A DNA stretch of 64,000 bases. Source: Sorangium aterium. GTDB lineage: Bacteria; Myxococcota_A; Polyangia; Polyangiales; Polyangiaceae. The notes beneath the pieces are model-generated. The model saw nothing but the letters and a program-made list of their open reading frames with translations, made no database searches and had not been told where the DNA came from. The stretch's first letter is position 1. The number at the start of each line of letters is the position of its first letter. The stretch is from NCBI RefSeq assembly GCF_028368935.1, contig NZ_JAQNDK010000007.1, positions 124,001 to 188,000 on the forward strand, written 5' to 3'. The translations under genes and the position numbers were made by a program. Shown one piece after another: positions 1 to 9,271 of this stretch.

Positions 1-509
1 TGCCGCAGCGAAGCAGCAAGGGGACTGGGGCGGACTGACGGAAAGAGGCGCCCCTGGTCGATGGCGCGTAACCAGCGCCGCACGGTCGCCCAGCTGTCGG
101 CATCGAAGCTGGCAGACCAGGGGCTGACACGCCGCCGCACCTCGATGAGCGCTGCACTGGCGATGCCGACGAGCAGCAGGGCCAGACCGATCGCCGTCGC
201 GGCGAAGTGCCGTCGCGGTGCGACGCCCCGCGGTACGACCGTGATCGTCGCGCCGCAGCGGCGGCATCGATAACGGCGCACCTCGATCGTGACGAGCCCG
301 CCGCGCTCGCCGGCAGCCAGCGGCCCGCGTACCTGCCGGGACCGCGAGCCGTGACCCCACAGCCCCAACCCGCCCCCCAGCGGGCAAGCCGCGGCACCGC
401 AACGCGGGCAGCGGGCTGGCCGCGCGCGATCTACGGTGGGCGGTGAAGCGAGCCAGCCTTTGACATCGAGGTCCAGATGGACGATCTGTTGAGGGCTCCG
501 CTCTTTCAA
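1..509 (-). CDS. Zinc-ribbon protein of mobile-element type, partial at the window edge
   Basis: An open minus-strand frame runs from an in-frame stop at 612-614 to the window edge without interruption. It encodes two CxxC pairs: one in a segment reading ARCPRCGAA and one reading RYRCRRCGAT. These are followed by a hydrophobic stretch (HFAATAIGLALLLVGIASAA) and a WATVRRWLRA segment. Two zinc-ribbon halves, a helical segment and a basic tail resemble the short zinc-finger proteins that accompany transposases in myxobacterial genomes; I cannot name the family. No ATG lies in the open part. A TTG at 507-509 is the most reasonable start I see, but the frame stays open to 611. The 3' end is missing. 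It sits upstream of an IS66 remnant on the same strand, so it may be part of the same debris. Confidence 0.5.
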   Translation of the reverse strand, partial: MKERSPQQIVHLDLDVKGWLASPPTVDRARPARCPRCGAAACPLGGGLGLWGHGSRSRQVRGPLAAGERGGLVTIEVRRYRCRRCGATITVVPRGVAPRRHFAATAIGLALLLVGIASAALIEVRRRVSPWSASFDADSWATVRRWLRAIDQGRLFPSVRPSPLAASLR

Positions 510-922
510 GCGATTCGGAGCACGACGGGAGGGGGCACGCGGCCAAACGAGCTCCTCCCGTCGCCTATTTTGTGGCCCGCGCCGCGCCGATGCTCCGCTC
601 CTGTCGCTGACCTACCCCGTTCGTGACGCGGACGGGCGAGGAGTCGTGCTGGTAATTTTCGGGAGACGAAGGGAATGCGCGCTCCCTCTTTTCCTGTGCA
701 CCCGCATTCGACCGACGCGATCGTGCTCAGGAGGAGCTACGCTGAGAATTTGATCGAACGCGGCGCAATGCATCGCCGGAGAAGGTCCTGGCAGCTTGCT
801 GCCCCCGGACAACGTCGCCATCGACCATGATCCGCCTCGGCGATGGTGCGCTGCGGTGAGCCGGCCGCCCCGCCATCAAAGAGCTGGCTCGACAAGCGCA
901 TCATCGGCATCAACGACGGTGC
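510..922. other. No convincing intact gene; short fragment shared with 21.4 kb
   Basis: No long conserved frame is visible. Positions 869-932 match 21384-21447 over 64 bp without gaps (about 54 identities by eye), and both copies keep the same plus-strand reading frame (IK..xRQAxHRxQR). This looks like the tail of a broken gene, cut on its right by the truncated IS66 tnpC at about 935. Confidence 0.45.
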
Positions 923-1585
923 TCAGTAACACTCGACAAGGATGCTGGCGAGCAGCCCCGGTCCCGGACGGCCTCGATCCATCACCTTCTCGCTATCGGC
1001 CGTCGTGACGCCCTGCTCCGGGCAGCGCGGGCAGGCGAGCTTCTCCCGCTGCTCCTCGATGATCTTGAACTGCGCCGGAACGAACTCGAGCACTTCGCTC
1101 GTACGATGGCCGATGCACTGCTTGTCCGCGCCGCACTGCGGGCACGTCCGCTCAGCCTGGGGGACGGGCACCACACGCGTCTCACGCGGCAGGTGCTCGG
1201 GAAGCGGCGCGCGCCCGCCCCGTCCTCGCGGCGGCTTCGGCGGCTCAGGGGGCTGCGGCACCAGCCCCTGCTCCGGCTGCGGCGGAGCGTCCGCGCCGAG
1301 CTCCGAGCCCGCCGCCCCCGGCGGCGCTTCCGCCCCGAGCTCGGCGAACATCAGCATCAGCTGCTCGGTGGAGACCTGCTGGCTCTTGCGGCCGTACAGG
1401 TCGCGCAGCGCGCTCGCGAGCCTCGCCGAGAGCGCGGTGTTCTTGTCACGCAGCTGGACCAGCAGCCCGAGCACCAGCTCGATGAGCTCCGGGATCTGCC
1501 CGGCGGCCGCCAGCTGCTCGAGCTTGCGCCGCACGTCCGCCAGATCGGCCGGCAGTTGTGCCTGGGACTGAAGAGGACTGGTCAC
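923..1585 (-). pseudogene. tnpC: IS66 transposase TnpC, N-terminal fragment
   Basis: About 220 residues, starting at a GTG (1583-1585) that overlaps the tnpB stop. The N-terminal part has the coiled, Leu-rich TnpC segment (LPADLADVRRKLEQLAAAG, then LRDLYGRKSQQ). A Pro-rich linker follows, then the IS66 zinc-finger region with CPQCGA and CPRCP pairs. The frame ends soon after GLLASILV, the point where full IS66 transposases enter the DDE domain, and reaches a stop at 923. The full family is about 500 residues, so more than half is missing, including all catalytic acids. Family knowledge gives the assignment; the truncation is seen directly. Confidence 0.85.
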
Positions 1586-2004
1586 GTGGCGCGCGAGATA
1601 GCTATCCCGCGCGCATCCATCAAGCTTTGCTTCGACGGAGCAATTTTTCTCACGCCAGGCCGCCAACGCTTGCGCCGTACGGCCTGGGACAGGTCGAGCC
1701 CTTCGAGCATCAGCGACAGCTCGGCCGCCTCGACCTCGACGTGGGTGGTCCCCTTGGGCAGGTCGCGGGCGAGATGGAATCGTCCGCGGGCCAATTTTTT
1801 CGCCACGATCATGTAGCCAGTTCGGTCCCAGAACAAAACGCGCATCTGGTCACCTCGCCGATTCCTGAACACGAACAGATGCCCACAGAGTGGGTCGGCT
1901 CCGAAGCGCTGGGAGACCAAGGCCGACAGCCCATCAAAGCTCTTGCGCAGGTCCGTGGGCTCGGCGGCGACGTACACGCGCACCGACGGCGGCAGCGTCA
2001 GCAC
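1582..2004 (-). CDS. tnpB: IS66 accessory protein TnpB
   Basis: 140 residues. It carries the IS66 Orf2 hallmark sequence: VYVAAEPTDLRKSFDGL near the N-terminus, then LCGHLFVFRNRRGD and VLFWDRTGYMIVAKKL. TnpB is required for transposition of IS66 elements, but its biochemical role is not settled. The start overlaps the end of tnpA by 7 bp and the stop overlaps tnpC by four, so the three are translated as a unit. The last ~25 residues are longer than in most TnpB proteins. The gene itself looks intact, although the element is broken by loss of the tnpC core. Confidence 0.9.
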   Translation of the reverse strand: MLTLPPSVRVYVAAEPTDLRKSFDGLSALVSQRFGADPLCGHLFVFRNRRGDQMRVLFWDRTGYMIVAKKLARGRFHLARDLPKGTTHVEVEAAELSLMLEGLDLSQAVRRKRWRPGVRKIAPSKQSLMDARGIAISRAT

Positions 2005-2336
2005 GGCGTCTCCTCGGCCGCGAGCGCCAGTACCCGCTCGAGCGTGGCCGGGTCGAACCCCGGCCGGACCCGCACCACCCGCCCGTTGGGTAAGGCGATC
2101 TCGATCGGCTCCGGCGCGGCGACCGATGCGTCCGTCACCACGTGGACCGGCAGAAAGCGCGGTGCTTCGGTCAACGACGAGGGCGAGGGGTGCGAGGGCC
2201 GGTCAGCGCGCAGCTTCCAACGCCACCAGTAGAGCTGCTTCGGCTTGTACCCTTCGCGCCGCGCGAACTTCTCCGCGCTCAGCCCGCTGCGCTCCCATCG
2301 CTCCACCCGATCGGCCCACTCCACCCTCGTCGCCAT
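1998..2336 (-). CDS. tnpA: IS66 accessory protein TnpA (helix-turn-helix)
   Basis: 112 residues with an N-terminal HTH-like region (RVERWERSGLSAEKFARREG, then KQLYWWRWKLR) typical of IS66 TnpA/Orf1. The C-terminal half contains the family segment IEIALPNGRVVRVRPGFDPATL. TnpA is the first gene of the IS66 operon and probably binds DNA. The start ATG at 2334-2336 begins the MATRVEWADR sequence typical of the family. Its last codons overlap the tnpB start. No frameshift is seen. Confidence 0.88.
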   Translation of the reverse strand: MATRVEWADRVERWERSGLSAEKFARREGYKPKQLYWWRWKLRADRPSHPSPSSLTEAPRFLPVHVVTDASVAAPEPIEIALPNGRVVRVRPGFDPATLERVLALAAEETPC

Positions 2337-2408
2337 CGCTTCCTCCTTCGTCGCGATGGGGACTGGTAACCGGCCCCGACGGGCTGGTCACGATGGCGTT
2401 GGTCGGGT

Positions 2409-2564
2409 GGTTACTTCCCGCACGCCGCCTGCGTCGTCACGCTCGTCGATCGGCTGGTGCACCGCGCCGAGGTGATCGAGATCGAGGCCGAGAGCTACCG
2501 GCTCAAGGAAGCCAAGGAGCTGAGCGCCTCCCGCATCAAGCAGCGCCGCGCCAAGAAGCACTGA
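2409..2564 (+). pseudogene. istB: IS21 helper ATPase IstB, C-terminal remnant
   Basis: A plus-strand frame ending at the TGA 2562-2564 encodes [20 protein letters not shown], then [20 protein letters not shown] and a basic tail [10 protein letters not shown]. This is the C-terminal end of IstB-type AAA+ helper proteins of IS21 elements (DRL.HR..I..I.G.SYRLKEA). The P-loop part and IstA are absent. The remnant lies directly behind the start of the IS66 tnpA, so IS66 probably landed in, or recombined with, an older IS21 copy. Confidence 0.6.
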
Positions 2565-2608: not shown

Positions 2609-3033
2609 TCACCGGCACCGGGCGCGGATTTCACCGGTGAACTTCACCGAATCCCTGCGGATTGCCGCGATCATCAACAACGGACGGCGGAGCCGCGCGC
2701 GGACGAGCGTGATCACGCTCTGGAATATGTCGAGGAACACGCCGTCGAGCGTCGCCATGTCGAGGAGGCGCTCCAGCGCCTGCACGAAGCGGCCCTCGCG
2801 CCCCTCGCGCTCCGCCTCGAGCGCCGAGAGCAGCTCGGCGGGCCAGCCCCCGAGGGCGGCGGCCGGGATGCCCACGGCCTGCTCGAGTGCGCGCTCCAGC
2901 TCGTCGCGCCGGCCGCCGAGCAGCTGCGGCGCCCTGCGCGGCGGCGGCGGCGCCGTGAGCGGGCGCACGACGACGGGCCGCGACGCGCAGACGCACGACT
3001 CGCGCCGCGTGAGCTCGATCTGCTGCAGGTTGA
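2609..3033 (-). pseudogene. Gene fragment of unknown function cut by the left 175-bp repeat
   Basis: A minus-strand frame encodes a coherent-looking segment with Leu/Glu-rich helices (RRDELERALEQAVGI, ERLLDMATLDGVFLDIFQS) and ends at 2609. Upstream it stays open through LNLQQIELTRRES and stops being gene-like exactly where the 175-bp repeat begins (3034). I do not recognise the family. The simplest reading is a resident gene whose 5' part was replaced when the repeat-bounded OLD nuclease segment arrived. Confidence 0.4.
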
Positions 3034-3208
3034 GCGGATACGGAGCCCTACTGACCTCCCGAAGTGAAGAGAAAATTTGCCCCGCCCCTCCAGTTAACCT
3101 AACGCCACAACCACGACGTGGTCGTGCGATCCAGAAAAACCGAGTAATTTTAGCAGGTAAGCGTGTCCCGTGGGCTCAGCGGGTATCACTCTACTGTACG
3201 CGCCGCCC
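3034..3208. repeat. Direct repeat, left copy (putative IS91-type end)
   Basis: 175 bp that match 5624-5799 with about 13 differences by eye, in the same orientation. It contains a short inverted repeat, CACGAC-GTG-GTCGTG, at about 3113-3127 and an AT-richer core. The right copy abuts an IS91-type transposase remnant, so the segment is probably an end of that element. The two copies bracket the OLD nuclease gene. Confidence 0.85.
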
Positions 3209-3263
3209 CAATTGGCGATTCGGACAATGGTCACCAAGGGTTGCGATATTGAAGTTACTCGAC

Positions 3264-5381
3264 TTATCTTTTCGTGCCTGCAACGGCGTCGACCGGGGAC
3301 GAGAAGGGCTCAAACAGCTTCGCCCAGAGATCGATTATTGCGGGCGAAAGCTCTCTTGTCTTGAGCAAACGAGCCTTCACCGTCTTCGCCAGCTCGACCT
3401 TCCACCCCTGATCCAGAGTGATGCCATGCTTCGAGGCATACGCCTCGACCTGGGGAACAATGGGCTTCCCCTCAACCGCCACATCGCGGAAGTCCTCATC
3501 TTCCCCGCGATACGTGCGGCTTACGGCATCCACAATCAGGTTGTGCGGCATCAAGTCCTCGACCTCGGCCCCCTGGAGCCCGCCGAGGACATCGCCGATA
3601 TTCGTGATCCTCTTTCCCGCGTCGCCAGCGTAGATCGGTCCACTCCTCAGTTTCTTGGCGAAGTCGATGCCTGGGCCGTCGGAATCGAGAATCACATAGG
3701 GAGGCGCTTCATCCCGCGCTGTGATGATCGGCACAATGGCAGCCACGCCCTTTGCACCGCCGCCGGGATGAAAGATGATCTCCCGCTGCGGATTAATTCT
3801 TCCTAGGCCGATCAAGACGGTCTTGATGCCGCTCATGTAGTGTTGGTCGGACGAGCCCTCCACGATCACGTTTGTGCAGCCATGCAAAAGCGCATTCGAG
3901 GCTGAGAGGCCGAGCGCAGCATGGACTGCATAGACGGACTTCGCCTCCGACGACGTCGACTTCCCCGCGCGGAGGTCGGCAGACACCGCAGTCGCGCCGT
4001 TCGCATCGACGTACACGGCGCGCACGCGGTCGAGCCGATCGGGATCGACCAGGAACGGTGAGTGCGTGGTGTACAGGAGCTGATTCGTTCTGGAGAGGTT
4101 GTCGAAGAACGCAGAGAGGTCCTTCTGGGCGAGCGGGTGGAGCGAGAGTCCGGGTTCATCGAGCAACAAGATCGCATTCTCGTGAGCGTCACTGCTCTCG
4201 ACGAGGAAGACGAGGAAGAAGCTGAGGAACCACTGGAGGCCGGTGCTCCGCGATTCCAATTCCACCTCCTCGGGGCGCTTGTCATCCGACACCCATATTC
4301 TGAAGTGATCACCGTCAGCCTCGAAACGGAAGCGATAGTTGCCCTGCTTCCACCAGGCGCGGAATTCCTTGGTGAGCCGCGAACTGGCCGACTGGAGGAG
4401 CACGCTTCGCTCCTTTGTGCGCTCTGCTGCGGCAGTGATGGCCTCCTGCGACGGTTTGGGTGCACCGGCTGTCGCAGCGGCCTTGCCCAGCTCCAAGATC
4501 TCCTCGGGTTTCAATTTGACGAAGTCGAAGAGCACCTTGAGGGTACGGGCCTTCGCCTCTTCTTTCGCGCCGAGGCCCTCCCGCTTCATGTTCTGGATGA
4601 CGTGCGGGAGGTAGATCTCGGAGTCGAGATTACCGTAGTTGGAGTAGTAAACGAACGCTGGCAAGCGTTTGAGCGCGAGGTTCCTCGCGTCCTCGCGCTC
4701 GTTCGGATGCGACATACTGATACGCTTCATAGTGTCGTCGATTCCCTCGACGAGCGCCATCCAACAGGCCGACAACGATGTGGACGTCGTTTCGGGGAGG
4801 GCGACTTCAGAGAGGGAAGCGCTCACGTTCGAGAGCGCGTCGCGGTCCACCAGGTCGACATCCGCCAAGATGCGTAGTGCTCCATCGATTGCCGTCGTCA
4901 TCGATGCGCGGCGGACGTTCTCGCCGGACTCTTTCTCAATCTTTCCGCGCACATTCGCCAGTAACTCACGGACGTCGACTGCGGGGACGGAGCGCGGCGG
5001 TTCGGCGTTAGGGAAGGTGACGTGACGCTGGCCGTCGAAGCGGCAGGTGAACCGCACGACGTTGAAGTGATCCACTGATATCCCGGTAAGGTCTGCCAGC
5101 GCTATGGCCAGCTCGGCGTCCGTCTCGAAGTCGGCGTAGATGAACGCGCGATCCTGGCTGACCTGGCGGAGCTCGCTGTACTCGCTGCGCGGGAAGTCCG
5201 CGAGCGGCACGATCGCGCCGTCTTTCGCCGGGTTCAGCTTCCAGAGAGGAAGAAGCAGGTTCGTCTTGCCCGACTCGTTCACCCCGATCAGAGACGTAAC
5301 TGTGTCGGTTTCGATCCAGCCGCTATCCTGCACCGACCGGAAGCCCATCACCTGGAATCGTGTCAACTTCAGCATGCGCAC
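3264..5381 (-). CDS. OLD-family nuclease (ABC-type ATPase plus Toprim)
   Basis: 705 residues. An N-terminal ABC/SMC-like ATPase domain has Walker A GVNESGKT (33-40), Walker B LLLDEPGLSLHP (D408, E409) and a switch histidine in TTHSPFLV. A C-terminal Toprim domain has the conserved glutamate in VIVEGSSD (E508) and the metal-binding pair in LDSDG (D566, D568). This is the class 1 OLD layout: a stand-alone nuclease whose ATPase gates DNA cleavage; related proteins act in phage defence (P2 Old, GajA). No GajB-like helicase gene lies next to it, so Gabija is not supported. All key residues are present and the reading frame is intact. The gene is visibly less GC-rich than its surroundings and is flanked by direct repeats, both signs of transfer. 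Confidence 0.88.
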   Translation of the reverse strand: MRMLKLTRFQVMGFRSVQDSGWIETDTVTSLIGVNESGKTNLLLPLWKLNPAKDGAIVPLADFPRSEYSELRQVSQDRAFIYADFETDAELAIALADLTGISVDHFNVVRFTCRFDGQRHVTFPNAEPPRSVPAVDVRELLANVRGKIEKESGENVRRASMTTAIDGALRILADVDLVDRDALSNVSASLSEVALPETTSTSLSACWMALVEGIDDTMKRISMSHPNEREDARNLALKRLPAFVYYSNYGNLDSEIYLPHVIQNMKREGLGAKEEAKARTLKVLFDFVKLKPEEILELGKAAATAGAPKPSQEAITAAAERTKERSVLLQSASSRLTKEFRAWWKQGNYRFRFEADGDHFRIWVSDDKRPEEVELESRSTGLQWFLSFFLVFLVESSDAHENAILLLDEPGLSLHPLAQKDLSAFFDNLSRTNQLLYTTHSPFLVDPDRLDRVRAVYVDANGATAVSADLRAGKSTSSEAKSVYAVHAALGLSASNALLHGCTNVIVEGSSDQHYMSGIKTVLIGLGRINPQREIIFHPGGGAKGVAAIVPIITARDEAPPYVILDSDGPGIDFAKKLRSGPIYAGDAGKRITNIGDVLGGLQGAEVEDLMPHNLIVDAVSRTYRGEDEDFRDVAVEGKPIVPQVEAYASKHGITLDQGWKVELAKTVKARLLKTRELSPAIIDLWAKLFEPFSSPVDAVAGTKR

Positions 5382-5623
5382 CGTTCCTCGCGGGAAGGGC
5401 TGGGATGCTAGCGCGGAGCGCGAGCGAGGTCGACGGCTCCCGGCGTCTGGAGAGGTCCCAGGTCCGACCCCTAGGTGTTCTTGAGCACGTCCGCTGCGAG
5501 CACAACCCAGGACGCGGTCTTCGAGATCCGCCCGTTAACAAGCATCCGCCCCATCCAGACCGGCGTTGTAGGCGACCCAGTCGCGGGCGGCAAGGCCGGT
5601 GCGTTCCTCCTTCCACCGCTCCG

Positions 5624-5799
5624 GCGGATAGGGAGCCCTACCGACTTCCCGAAGTGAAGAGGAAATTTGCCCCGCCCATCCAGTTAACCTAACGCCACAT
5701 CCACGACGTGGTCGTGCCATCCAGAAAAACCGAGTAATTTTAACAGGTAAGCGTGTCCCGTTGGGGTCAGCGGTTACCACTCTACTGTACGCGCCGCCC
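5624..5799. repeat. Direct repeat, right copy, abutting the IS91-type transposase
   Basis: Right-hand partner of the 3034-3208 repeat. On its high-coordinate side it continues straight into the 3' end of a minus-strand IS91-type transposase remnant, so it occupies the position of the element's downstream (oriIS-side) end. The same CACGAC/GTCGTG hairpin is present. The 240 bp between the OLD start and this repeat hold no gene that I can see. Confidence 0.85.
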
Positions 5800-6700
5800 A
5801 GATTGAGCTCGTTCAAACGGGGGCGCCGGCGTGCCTCGCGCCCACACGTTCGCCTCGTCCCGGCGTCTGGTCGGGTGACCGTCGGCGGTCTCGTGGCGGC
5901 TCGCAACTTTGCGGCGCCGTCCATCCAGGAGGCCGGGTCGTCCGGGTCGCGGGTCTGGGATCGCGGCGAGGTCGGATCGGCGGGCAGGCCGAGGTGTTCC
6001 AGGATCTTCCTGGCGGTTGCCTTCTCGGTGATGGCGGCGAGAAGGCGCAGGCGGCCGGCGCAATGCGCGCAACGGTGGGCGTCGAGCCCGAACGTTCGAC
6101 GGATGAGCTTGGCCCAGGCGATGCGCGGCGAGGTCGCGAGCAGCAGGCCGCCGAGCAGCCTGTCGAGGTGGCGGACGGAGATGCCGAAGTCCGTGATCAC
6201 GACGTCGCCGGCAACAGCGGCCACCGCGCAGCAAGCCGCGGGCATCACGGCGGGCCCGGCCGGTGCTGCTGCGAGCGGCGGTGAGGAGAACGTTTGCGGG
6301 CTGAAGGGTACGGCGGCGCCCCCCGGCGCGGACGTCCGCTCCGCGCGAGGTGGCACGGGGACGGGCGCGGCGCGCTTCGGCGTTGGCGGCTGCATCAAGG
6401 CTGGCGTTGCCGCATCGCACTTTACGGTCCCGCTGCCGCTCGCCGGAAGGTCGTGAGCGTGCACGACACCCGGCGGCTTGGGCACCACCGCGGTGCGCCA
6501 CTTGGAGTGTCGCGCGAGCACGCCGTGATAGATCACGAGCGGAACTCTGGGCGGCAGTACCAGCGCCGCGAGCCGCGCCAGCAGCTCGACCGGCGTCATC
6601 ACGCGGTGGGTGCCGCCGCGCCCTCCGTACTTGACGCGGTAGGCAAATTGCGGCGCGGCGGGCAGGTTGCGTCGACGCCACGATGACGCGGGTTCGTCGG
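5800..6700 (-). pseudogene. IS91-family (Y2) transposase, C-terminal fragment
   Basis: The frame opens close to the end of the upstream small gene and encodes QFAYRVKYGGRGGTHRVMTP, then VELLARLAALVLPPRVPLVI and YHGVLARHSKWR. This is the diagnostic C-terminal region of IS91/IS801 transposases. A Pro/Ala-rich linker follows, then DAHRCAHCAGRLRLLAAITE, the C-terminal zinc-binding segment. The N-terminal zinc finger and the catalytic double-tyrosine region are missing, so it is inactive. IS91-type elements move by rolling-circle transposition and can carry neighbouring DNA, which is relevant to the OLD gene alongside. The frame reads on through the repeat to 5535, so the true stop is unclear. Confidence 0.8.
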
Positions 6701-6703
6701 CAG

Positions 6704-6916
6704 CTAGATCGTGGCCTCGTCATCCCTCAGAAGCCCGTCAATCTTGCTTAGCAAATCTCGCTTGACCCGCTGCCGGTTCAGTTCGTCTTCGTAACCGGCC
6801 TTGACCGATGCCACCTTGACAACGCCCTTGATCATCATCAGAGCGTCGATCGTTCGCTGCGCCTCATCGTCATCCAAGTCGCGCCGAAAGTGGACAACCA
6901 GGCCCTTGACGCTCAT
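6704..6916 (-). CDS. Small conserved-looking protein of unknown function
   Basis: 70 residues beginning MSVKGLVVHFRRDLDDDEA, with a beta-alpha-beta pattern (KGLVVHF, then QRTIDALMMIKGVVKVASV) and a charged helical tail (QRVKRDLLSKIDGLL). Short proteins with this layout occur in bacteria and phages without assigned function; I recognise the type but cannot name a family. The length and clean N-terminus suggest a complete gene. Its stop lies directly at the truncated 5' end of the IS91 transposase remnant, so the element joins the chromosome just behind it. Confidence 0.55.
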   Translation of the reverse strand: MSVKGLVVHFRRDLDDDEAQRTIDALMMIKGVVKVASVKAGYEDELNRQRVKRDLLSKIDGLLRDDEATI

Positions 6917-6979
6917 TGCAATCCCACTCCCCGCACAGAGTTCTCGCTGGCTTCCCGAAGCATGATGATATTACGTAAT

Positions 6980-7876
6980 TCACCCATGGCTCCCGACCCC
7001 CGGAAGTGTCGTGTTCAGCGGAGAGCGCTCTACGTCCTCCCAATCGGCAGCCGTTGCGGAACCCTTCCCGCCTTCGGCACGCTGTACCGGGAAGCTCGTC
7101 AGCGTCGCAGCGCGCCGGGCGGGCTCAGTCCCCGTGGCGGCGCGGACAGGGAGCGGCGACCGAAGCCGCGGCAGTGGAGGCGGCGGGAGCTTCGCCCGCG
7201 GGCTCCTGGCCGCAAGCTCGGGAGACGGGACCACAGGCGGAGGAACGTCGAGCGCGCGGGGAGGTAGCGTCGGCGGTGTCGAGCTCTGCGCCGGCGACGA
7301 CGCGGGACGCGCCGAGCTCTCGCGCTTGGTGACGGGCTCGCCGACCTGGATCACTACGGTCTCCTCGGCGTCGGTCCGGTGGTCGTCGTGCAGCTGCCAG
7401 AGGCGCTCCCAGTACCGCGCCGGCGTGCCGGTGAAGGCCTCCAGCTGCCGGGCAAGGCTGGGCGTCATCGGGAGGTCGCTCCTCAGCAACCGTTCCACCT
7501 CCTTCGGCTCCAACCCCGTGCTCTCGGCCAGCTTCCTCCTCCACGAAGGCGTCGTCGCGCAGAACGACTCGAGGACCCTTCCTGGCCAGGGGACGGGGCG
7601 CGCACGGGCGTCTGTCAGCTCCGCGAGTGCCGCGTCGACGTGACAGTCCAGAAGGCGCCGGCATCGGTCCCGCTCCGCCGCAGCCTGCTCCTTCGCATCG
7701 GTGAGGGCTGCCTCGTCGTCATCATGCGCGTGCTCGCGCGCCTCGCGAAGCCCGCGCTCGCGTCCGAGCGCTTCGCGCGCGGTGACCGCGAAGCCGATCG
7801 CGACGCAGGCGATCATCGCGAGCCCGAGCGGCGAAATGAGCCACATTGCACCAAGCAGATCCTCCATCGAATTCAT
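6980..7876 (-). CDS. Membrane-anchored protein with HigA-like HTH and Pro-rich tail
   Basis: 298 residues. One N-terminal membrane segment (about 8-30, MWLISPLGLAMIACVAIGFA) is followed by a charged coiled-coil-like region (about 35-85). The next segment, about 110-165, has the pattern of HigA/XRE antitoxin DNA-binding domains: STGLEPKEVERLLRSDLPMT, then PSLARQLEAFTGTPARYWER. A long Pro/Ser/Ala-rich C-terminus ends the protein. No HigB-like toxin is adjacent, so this is not a standard toxin-antitoxin gene. It lies 120 bp downstream of the ECF sigma gene on the same strand and may share its transcript. Function unknown; a membrane-tethered regulator is inference. Confidence 0.6.
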   Translation of the reverse strand: MNSMEDLLGAMWLISPLGLAMIACVAIGFAVTAREALGRERGLREAREHAHDDDEAALTDAKEQAAAERDRCRRLLDCHVDAALAELTDARARPVPWPGRVLESFCATTPSWRRKLAESTGLEPKEVERLLRSDLPMTPSLARQLEAFTGTPARYWERLWQLHDDHRTDAEETVVIQVGEPVTKRESSARPASSPAQSSTPPTLPPRALDVPPPVVPSPELAARSPRAKLPPPPLPRLRSPLPVRAATGTEPARRAATLTSFPVQRAEGGKGSATAADWEDVERSPLNTTLPGVGSHG

Positions 7877-7996
7877 CGCGTTTCGTCTCCTGGACGTGAA
7901 TATCCTTGTCTAGACGCAGGGCAGATCTCGGCCTTGTGCTGTCCAACGACACCACCTGCGTCACCGCCTCCTGGCTGTTGGAGGGACGCCGAGGGC

Positions 7997-9052
7997 TCAG
8001 CGAATCTGCGCTAGGAGTGCTTCGCGCTCCGCGGCGAGCTGTCCTTGCGGGAACTCCCGCGCATGTGTCTCAAGCAATCGGCGCGCCTCTGCGGCCGCGT
8101 TGTGGTCATCGATGGCCCTTCGGGCCTCGTCGATGAGGCTCTGCTCGCGCTGGCTGACGGCTGGGACCACGGCGCGGACGGGGAGCGAGGTACGACGAAC
8201 CGGCGCGCCTGACGGAGCAGGCGCCCGTGCGCCTCGGTCCTGCGCCGGCTGCGCGACCTCCTGCGCGGTGGGCGTGGCCGAAGCGCGCAGGGAAAGTTGG
8301 GCCGGAGGCGGCGCGATCTCCACCACCGCCGGAGCGGGCGCAGGAGCGCGCACCACCGCCGCCCGCAACCACGACGCCGGGTTGAACGAGTCCGGCAATG
8401 CCGCGACGACGGCGCCGGTCAGCACGACGATCGCTCCCTGGACCAGGATCTTGATGCCCAGGCGGCCTAGCTTGCTCAGCCACCCCTCGCGGCAGCGCAA
8501 ATGGAAGGCGAACGGGACGCACGCAGCGTCGTCCCATCCGTGCGAGCGCTGCCGCGCCCTCCGGCGTTCCACGGCCGCGTAGAGGTCCTCCAGCGCTCGG
8601 CGGTAATGTGTCCTCACCGTCTTCGGATTGATCCCCTGCTCGGAGGCGATCTCGACGAGCGGCACCTCCTCGATCGCGTGCTTGATCAAGACGTCGCGGT
8701 ACTTGGGGTCGACCTGGTTGATCAGGTCGTGGAGGAGCGCCTCTCGCTGCTGCCTGCGGAGCATCTCTTCTGGGGTCGGGCACTCCGCCTGAGGCTCGTG
8801 ATCATCGAACGAGGTCAGGACCTCCCCCCGACGGCGTGCGTTCCGGACGTGGTTCCGCGCCTGGTTCAGGACGATGGTGGCACCGTAGGATGCTCGGGCC
8901 TCCCCGAGCTCGACCCGCTGAGCCGCTTCCAGTTCCCGCAGCAAGGCGTCCTGCGCGAGGTCCTCCGCGTCTTGCGCAGGGAGCCCGAGGCGCCGCGCGA
9001 GGCGCCGGAGGAACTCGAAGCCGGTGGGGGTGCTGGCTGGCTCGCCCATCAC
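7997..9052 (-). CDS. ECF-type sigma factor with fused membrane segment and periplasmic domain
   Basis: 351 residues. Residues about 10-80 form sigma region 2 (LGLPAQDAEDLAQDALLREL). Residues about 105-165 form region 4 with the HTH (KYRDVLIKHAIEEVPLVEIA, then NPKTVRTHYRRALEDLYAAV). A membrane segment follows (about 200-220, IKILVQGAIVVLTGAVVAAL), then a Pro/Ala-rich linker and a helical C-terminal repeat like a TPR (SLIDEARRAIDDHNAAAEAR). Most ECF factors end after region 4; here the sigma part is tethered to the membrane with a domain on the far side, so the protein may hold its own anti-sigma function. It is divergent from the PEGA/lipoprotein genes across a 16-bp palindrome, which suggests it controls them. 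Starts at 9052 and 9049 are both possible. Confidence 0.8.
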   Translation of the reverse strand: MMGEPASTPTGFEFLRRLARRLGLPAQDAEDLAQDALLRELEAAQRVELGEARASYGATIVLNQARNHVRNARRRGEVLTSFDDHEPQAECPTPEEMLRRQQREALLHDLINQVDPKYRDVLIKHAIEEVPLVEIASEQGINPKTVRTHYRRALEDLYAAVERRRARQRSHGWDDAACVPFAFHLRCREGWLSKLGRLGIKILVQGAIVVLTGAVVAALPDSFNPASWLRAAVVRAPAPAPAVVEIAPPPAQLSLRASATPTAQEVAQPAQDRGARAPAPSGAPVRRTSLPVRAVVPAVSQREQSLIDEARRAIDDHNAAAEARRLLETHAREFPQGQLAAEREALLAQIR

Positions 9053-9200
9053 TGGTAGAACACCTGAGCCGCCTGGAGGGCTTCAAAAAAATGCAGGGCA
9101 GCCCCAGCGTCCGTCGAACCATGTGCGACATGTAGGGACGCCGCGTCCGCAACTGCACGAGCAGCGGTGGCCGCATTCCCGGATCGGGTGCGATTTTCTC

Positions 9201-9216
9201 ACCCGAACGTTCGGGT
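9201..9216. promoter_or_regulatory. Perfect 16-bp palindrome in a divergent promoter region
   Basis: ACCCGAACGTTCGGGT is its own reverse complement. It lies in the 219-bp gap between the divergent sigma-factor gene (start 9052, minus) and the PEGA gene (start 9272, plus), 56 bp upstream of the latter. Position and symmetry suit an operator for a dimeric regulator acting on one or both promoters. Confidence 0.55.
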
Positions 9217-9271
9217 TACGACATTTTCAGCGCCGTTGACGCGCCACGGCTGGCGTAAGTACCGTTCATGC

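What the first reader, a model, noticed from the sequence alone, without database searches (positions are those of the whole stretch)
3034..6700. OLD nuclease bounded by direct repeats that derive from an IS91-type end
A 175-bp sequence lies on both sides of the OLD gene in direct orientation (about 93% identical by eye), and the right copy runs straight into the 3' end of an IS91-type transposase remnant. IS91 elements transpose by rolling circle and can capture neighbouring DNA. The arrangement therefore suggests that a defence nuclease was carried between two element ends, leaving a composite unit.
Basis: partly seen in the sequence, partly recalled or inferred. Interest (0 to 1): 0.65.

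Follow-up and report, generated by a model that had tools for sequence, protein, structure and literature searches.

The report
Phage-defence nuclease between two IS91 ends
A probable phage-defence nuclease gene sits between two copies of the end of an IS91-type jumping element, which looks like an old, decayed case of a rolling-circle transposon having picked up and inserted a gene.

Summary
A 181-bp direct repeat (3034-3214, 5624-5805; 168 identities, 13 mismatches, 1 gap) brackets a 705-aa single-gene OLD nuclease with complete motifs. The right copy is the 3' non-coding end of an IS91-type transposase remnant that aligns only to residues 412-603 of a 615-aa relative. The repeat is most likely an IS91 end: both copies stop at CCTATCCGC (one mismatch on the left), where six other IS91 copies of this genus stop aligning, exactly or within 11 bp. 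A 17-bp motif at the right copy's inner edge lies at the same place behind three of its nearest relatives, though the sequence between is not alignable with them. The left copy is a solo end; a LacI-type gene fragment breaks at its terminus, while six of six paralogues examined read on. A younger copy of the layout (615-aa IS91, 1,258 bp, solo end with 227 of 228 bases identical) lies elsewhere in the genome. OLD has low G+C and no match in five genus-mates. Best reading: a decayed one-ended (oriIS-side) IS91 capture. The ends are well supported; the transposition is inferred. No left (terIS) end, canonical target or whole-unit empty site was found.

The parts
3034..3214 (-). Left repeat: solo IS91-type 3' (oriIS-side) end, terminus at 3034 (3034-3042 reads CGTATCCGC on the - strand); no transposase attached
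   Evidence: homology to the right copy stops at the terminus motif
3264..5381 (-). OLD-family ATPase-Toprim nuclease, 705 aa, apparently intact, single gene
   Evidence: G+C 0.607 against 0.69 for the window
5382..5623 (.). 242 bp between the right IS91 terminus and the OLD start codon; origin unknown; no sigma-70-type promoter and no ter-like end found
5624..5805 (-). Right repeat: terminal part of the IS91 3' non-coding region, terminus at 5624 (5624-5632 reads CCTATCCGC on the - strand)
5804..5820 (-). 17-bp motif CCGTTTGRACGAGCTCA at the inner edge of the right repeat (overlaps it by 2 bp), shared with the 3' regions of three of the nearest IS91 relatives
5806..5915 (-). rest of the IS91 3' non-coding region, between the transposase C-terminus and the repeat
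5916..6650 (-). IS91-type transposase remnant (C-terminal part; the region that holds the HUH motif in the intact relative is missing)
2681..3033 (-). fragment of a LacI/periplasmic-binding-type gene that ends at the left terminus (alignments to paralogues end at 3023-3037); six of six paralogues examined read through this point
6647..6990 (-). native flank right of the remnant (70-aa ORF 6704-6916), homologous to G005:C874 and own C3:900570

Best explanation
The OLD gene lies between two direct copies of the 3' (oriIS-side) terminal region of an IS91-type rolling-circle element. The right copy still carries the last part of its transposase; the left copy is a solo 181-bp end. Shown: the two copies, the terminus motif they share with other IS91 copies of the genus, the break of a host-type gene at the left terminus, and the recurrence of the layout (IS91 - DNA - solo end) at another locus of the same genome. 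Inferred: the OLD gene together with the left end arrived as a one-ended, transposase-less product. Rolling-circle replication started at an oriIS end, ran on into neighbouring DNA that held OLD, and the product [OLD - end] was inserted between the terminus of an existing IS91 and its target, or was joined there by recombination between ends. The right element has lost its front part, so today the unit is an immobile relic unless intact IS91 copies elsewhere in the genome act on it in trans. OLD itself most likely acts as a stand-alone (class 1) anti-phage ATPase-nuclease.
For: Terminus: pairwise homology of IS91 copies stops at CCTATCCGC exactly for L197/L198, L197/L210 and L200/L202, 2 bp beyond for L198/L210 and L201/L202, 11 bp beyond for L200/L201 (motif positions). 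The same motif ends the right copy (exact) and the left copy (1 mismatch); of 11 ends tabulated, 7 are exact and 4 have one mismatch. The 9-mer occurs once on the two strands of the 64-kb window, at the right copy. A 17-mer at the inner edge of the right copy (1 mismatch) is exact in L022 and behind the IS91 copies L200, L201 and L202, and at up to 2 mismatches lies at no other place in the 1,192,212 bases held (overlapping loci counted repeatedly). Left terminus: 6 of 6 paralogues examined continue. Younger parallel: G000:C2, IS91 ORF of 615 aa with Zn_Tnp_IS91, Y2_Tnp and HVHFH, terminus at L241:870, then 1,258 bp, then a 228-bp solo end with 227 of 228 bases identical to its neighbour's end, terminus at L241:2356, abutting a kinase gene near its start. 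OLD: low G+C; no match in 5 of 5 genus-mates; 9 of 144 genomes, own one included, match at E <= 1e-20.
Against: Between the 17-mer and the terminus the right copy (197 bp) does not align with L201 or L202 (score 17; shuffles reach 19, mean 10), and its outer 65 bp match none of 17 other IS91 loci above 31 of 65 letters, L022 apart (L203 had no flank), so the tie to IS91 rests on the attached C-terminus, the motif and the terminus. The motif was recognised after the fact. No ter-like 5' end between OLD and the right terminus (best 16 of 31 letters; 17-18 elsewhere in 7 kb). GTTC, CTTG, GAAC or CAAG follow the terminus in 0 of 11 cases (read), so the target known for IS91 (recalled) is not seen. 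The two copies differ by 7%, and in the inner part the right copy is nearer to L022 (63 of 68) than the left copy is (29 of 35), so the left end was not made recently from the right one. In L022 the 3' region is rearranged. No empty site for the whole unit: both flanks are patchworks. The front part of the broken LacI-type gene was not found by tblastn in the window or 7 kb to its left. No expression or mobility data.
Confidence: 0.63

Rival explanations
1. Two separate full IS91 insertions on either side of an OLD gene that was already there; the left one later lost its transposase and everything up to OLD by deletion. The ends then bracket OLD by accident and never carried it.
For: The genome holds IS91-type matches at nine or more places (14 matches, only 19 of 107 candidates scored), several of them fragments; the flanks are an insertion-sequence graveyard; the copies differ by 7%.
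Against: The young C2 locus has the same layout with a solo end identical at 227 of 228 bases to the intact neighbour, so short solo ends behind other DNA can arise recently; both solo ends are of similar length (181 and 228 bp).
Confidence: 0.22
2. OLD came in on a plasmid, phage or integrative element, and the IS91 ends are later visitors.
For: OLD relatives lie on plasmids (84 records), in one phage record and beside a tyrosine integrase (L188); 0 of 11 such loci examined, 2.1 to 16 kb each, has an IS91 transposase or end.
Against: In the calls made, no integrase, plasmid or phage gene was seen directly beside OLD; the segment starts and stops at IS91-type termini.
Confidence: 0.11
3. The repeat is a dispersed intergenic or gene-cassette repeat (for example attC-like), with IS91 next to it by chance.
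For: Partial copies stand behind four unrelated genes in the same orientation (OLD, an 87-aa ORF that looks like a membrane protein, a Fic-like gene, an NmrA-like gene); the sequence between motif and terminus is not alignable with other IS91 subfamilies.
Against: Single-strand folding is no better than shuffles (z 0.56 and 0.59); no Rfam family reached its gathering score; terminus and 17-mer tie it to IS91.
Confidence: 0.04

Closest known systems
ISCR1 and its downstream genes (IS91/ISCR family)
   Same: [quoted passage not shown] ISCR1 has a 232-bp oriIS region and intergenic distances of 0-1211 bp (PMC6218425, passages); here the 3' region is 292 bp and the distance 242 bp. ISCR1's right end reads GTGGTTTATACTTCCTATACCC (PMC13023784, passages); here ..TTCCTATCCGC or ..CTCCCTATCCGC.
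   Different: Transposase broken; second solo end behind the gene; cargo is a probable defence nuclease, not a resistance gene; no sigma-70-type outward promoter found.
IS91/ISCR one-ended transposition
   Same: One oriIS region of about 100 bp is said to be enough to move neighbouring DNA (PMC13023784, passages).
   Different: Canonical tetranucleotide target not seen; transposition not demonstrated here.
Class 1 OLD nucleases (PDB 6P74; that this is Thermus scotoductus OLD is recalled)
   Same: ATPase plus Toprim, single gene without a UvrD-type helicase behind it; 6P74 is the only solved sequence matched at E <= 0.01 (4.4e-8).
   Different: 705 aa against 528; its nearest plasmid relatives are 45-48% identical.
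Gabija GajA (class 2 OLD)
   Same: Weaker domain match (1.9e-9).
   Different: No GajB-type helicase gene beside it.

Membership tests
IS91 family (right element and ends) | Transposase of the HUH Y2 type with zinc-binding domain | tested here: inconclusive
   The remnant aligns only from residue 412 on: ISCR_clade_Ia 2.7e-15, far below its curated cut-off, Y2_Tnp 0.013, below cut-off. The intact relative L198 passes both Pfam models.
IS91 family (right element and ends) | Fixed 3' (oriIS-side) terminus downstream of the transposase gene | tested here: met
   CCTATCCGC at the homology break
IS91 family (right element and ends) | terIS end upstream of the transposase | tested here: not met
   Front part of the right element is missing, and no ter-like end lies at OLD's 5' side; a candidate 5' boundary was seen only in other copies.
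IS91 family (right element and ends) | Terminus next to GAAC/CAAG (GTTC/CTTG) target (recalled) | tested here: not met
   0 of 11 flanks read, one of them of an intact relative, so it may not hold for this branch
IS91 family (right element and ends) | Rolling-circle transposition | not testable with these tools
   needs an assay
Class 1 OLD nuclease | N-terminal ATPase with Walker A and B and C-terminal Toprim acidic residues | tested here: met
   GVNESGKTN, LLLDEPGLSLHP, IVEGSSD and ILDSD aligned with 4 relatives; motif names recalled; one relative (L188) is cut and lacks the Walker A part
[quoted passage not shown]
   Downstream are the left end and a LacI-type fragment
Class 1 OLD nuclease | Anti-phage activity | not testable with these tools
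   needs a phage challenge assay
Integron gene cassette (attC) | attC site able to fold, with RYYYAAC and GTTRRRY ends (recalled) | tested here: not met
   folding no better than shuffles; the end motifs were only looked at by eye, no call

The most novel reading that the evidence does not exclude
In this genome, IS91-type elements leave short solo oriIS-side ends behind captured genes: OLD (window), an 87-aa membrane-like ORF (L022), a Fic-like gene without a longer DNA match in the genus-mates (L023) and an NmrA-like gene (L024); in the last three only part of the end remains. Such gene-plus-end units would be transposase-less elements that intact IS91 copies could move in trans, the bacterial counterpart of non-autonomous Helitrons that carry host genes, here with defence or toxin-like cargo.
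Probability: 0.25. Interest if true: 0.65.

Novelty: new member of a known kind. Interest (0 to 1): 0.45.

Why it matters
How stand-alone defence genes travel when they are not on phages, plasmids or islands is mostly unclear. IS91/ISCR elements are known for carrying resistance genes; a probable defence nuclease framed by two IS91-type ends, with a young parallel in the same genome, makes it testable whether the same one-ended mechanism also spreads defence genes in bacteria with very large genomes.

Tried and rejected
Integron-like cassette (attC): folding no better than shuffles; termini are those of IS91. REP/RAYT-type repeat (a recollection of mine): the own genome has no Y1_Tnp match at E <= 0.001, and the 39 exact matches of a 16-mer of the repeat in genome contigs do not extend (best row 11 of 40 letters before and 25 of 64 after; 39 of 39 scored). 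IS66 end (GTAAGCG, recalled): considered by eye, dropped once the terminus was found. Terminus search: 15 IS91 loci were scanned by pattern; it appeared in 8, of which L195 (not at a homology break) and L204 (CCTACCCCC) were left out of the terminus argument, and 7 showed none. L194 and L195, of the subfamily of L201 and L202, part from these 27 bp behind the C-terminal match and show no 17-mer, so not every copy keeps this end; L203, one of the best-scoring relatives, is cut at a contig end. My early idea that the outer 58 bp is not IS91's stands at the level of sequence and is told under evidence against. Empty site of L022: its right-hand gene tail exists in G004 and G005 and its McrBC-like pair in G004, in other arrangements; no empty site. 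Empty site of L023: in G001 and G003 a conserved stretch lies directly before the holA-like gene (named by eye), in G002 and G004 a different insert of about 870 bp stands there, and the own genome differs on the left as well. Plasmid DNA search with the right copy and remnant: no match. Paper searches for IS91 with defence terms and for IS91 with Sorangium (a guess at the host) showed nothing on this arrangement in the listings (15 of 450 and 1 of 1 listed).
Full report
The observation. The direct repeat is real: 3034-3214 and 5624-5805, same orientation, 168 identical and 13 mismatched positions and one gap; the alignment score is 153 against at most 18 for 200 shuffles. With five matching places in 13.47 Mb, a pair within 2.6 kb is expected 0.004 times by chance. 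Between them lies one gene, a 705-aa OLD-family protein on the minus strand. The right copy continues, through 110 bp of non-coding sequence, into the C-terminal part of an IS91-type transposase. Against a 615-aa transposase of the same genome the remnant covers residues 412-471 and 525-603. Right of about 6647 the native flank begins: the own paralogue at C3:900570 and G005:C874 match from 6652 and 6647 on.

What the repeat is. A first look in the own genome gave three further partial copies and seemed to speak against IS91: at C1 and C2 (L023, L024) there is no transposase beside them, and in L022 (C3) the IS91 C-terminus is joined to the outer 58 bp or so only, while the inner part stands 385 bp away. 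Two results turned this round. First, three of the best-scoring IS91 relatives (L200 in the own genome, L201 in G001, L202 in G004; protein identity 45-65%) carry, downstream of their stop codon, the 17-mer CCGTTTGGACGAGCTCA, which in the right copy lies at the inner edge of the repeat (5804-5820, one mismatch) and is exact in L022. At up to two mismatches it lies at no other place in the 1,192,212 bases held (overlapping loci counted as often as held). Second, IS91 copies of two subfamilies stop being alike at one motif, CCTATCCGC: L197 with L198, L197 with L210 and L200 with L202 exactly there, two pairs 2 bp and one pair 11 bp beyond. The homology of the two window copies stops at the same motif, exact on the right and with one mismatch on the left. 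Of 11 ends tabulated, 7 carry it exactly and 4 with one mismatch. I therefore take the repeat to be the 3' (oriIS-side) terminal region of an IS91-type element. ISCR1's right end as printed in PMC13023784 (passages seen) ends in TTCCTATACCC, which looks alike. A limit: from the 17-mer to the terminus the right copy is 197 bp and L201 212 bp long, but the two do not align better than shuffles (score 17 against at most 19), so only the two borders of this region are shared between subfamilies.

The left copy. It is a solo end, with no transposase sequence inside of it; OLD's stop codon is 49 bp from its inner edge. On its outer side a fragment of a LacI/periplasmic-binding-type gene (2681-3033) ends at the terminus (alignments end at 3023-3037), while 6 of 6 paralogues examined (own genome, G001 twice, G003, G004, G005; more are listed) run on, alike among themselves at 77-89%. 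The front part of the broken gene was not found by tblastn in the window or the 7 kb before it.

A younger parallel. At G000:C2 (L241 = C2:704500-711000) an IS91 with a 615-aa ORF that matches Zn_Tnp_IS91 and Y2_Tnp and holds HVHFH ends at L241:870; 1,258 bp follow, then a solo 228-bp end (L241:2129-2356), identical to the neighbour's end at 227 of 228 bases and ending at the same motif, joined to a protein-kinase gene near its start. So the layout IS91 - other DNA - solo end has arisen more than once in this genome. A further solo end lies at C1 upstream of another IS91.

The cargo. OLD has G+C 0.607 against 0.69 for the window. It has no match at E <= 1e-20 in the five genus-mates and matches in 9 of 144 genomes, the own one included. 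Relatives lie on plasmids (84 records; the best four 45-48% identical over 97-99% of the length) and in one phage record; the nearest (61%, G083) lies beside a tyrosine integrase. None of 11 loci with OLD relatives, 2.1 to 16 kb each, has an IS91 transposase or end, so the gene does not depend on IS91. The ATPase and Toprim motifs are present in the alignment with four relatives (names of motifs recalled). The one solved sequence that matches at E <= 0.01 is 6P74. No helicase gene follows, so Gabija is out. Anti-phage function is inferred from the family (abstracts in the listing only).

How it may work. IS91-family elements are described as replicating from oriIS to terIS, and one oriIS end is said to suffice for moving neighbouring DNA (PMC6218425 and PMC13023784, passages). 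The simplest account is that OLD plus the left end came as such a one-ended product and was placed at the terminus of a resident IS91, as at C2. OLD then lies downstream of the right oriIS-side end at 242 bp, as resistance genes do behind ISCR1 (0-1211 bp there). Whether the right end drives OLD is open; no sigma-70-type promoter was found there, which means little in a G+C-rich host.

Against this. There is no ter-like end at OLD's front; the tetranucleotide target known for IS91 (recalled) follows the terminus in 0 of 11 cases; the two copies differ by 7% and in the inner part the right one is nearer to L022 than the left one is; the middle of the 3' region is not alignable with other subfamilies; no empty site for the whole unit was found. 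Two independent insertions followed by deletion remain possible.

Verdict. In kind this is a known process (IS91/ISCR gene capture) with an unusual cargo and a clear second case in the genome.

Noticed in passing
L022 (G000:C3:727000-737000) 5383-9266: An ATPase gene (PADLOC PDC-M26A 1.3e-36; called McrB-like by eye) followed by a DUF2357/PD-(D/E)XK gene lies some 290 bp behind a partial IS91 end; the pair is 91% identical in G004 in a different, larger arrangement, so the spot looks like a variable defence locus.
   Followed up: partly
L023 (G000:C1:1911000-1920000) 3267-4594: A Fic-like gene (Pfam Fic 0.00073, below cut-off) ends within a partial copy of the IS91 3' region; gene and end lie in a stretch without DNA match above about 120 bp in the five genus-mates, beside a conserved holA-like gene (named by eye), where G002 and G004 carry a different insert.
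   Followed up: partly
window 1-931 and L026 4613-7509: End of a transposon with an rve-type transposase, an AAA ATPase and a DUF6431 gene; the last 931 bp occur five times in the genome at 100% identity (this copy included), so it seems recently active.
   Followed up: partly
window 932-2414: IS66 fragment, 100% identical to G000:C1:3991454-3992936; it begins where the transposon end stops.
   Followed up: no
window 6980-9052: Gene pair (298-aa protein without Pfam match and a sigma-70-family factor) with many paralogous copies in this genome and genus-mates.
   Followed up: no
window 3131-3142 and 5721-5732: CCAGAAAAACCG inside the repeat, on the + strand, also stands at the candidate 5' boundary of the C2 IS91 copy, with similar letters at two C1 places; it may be a trace of a ter-like sequence in reverse orientation.
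   Followed up: no
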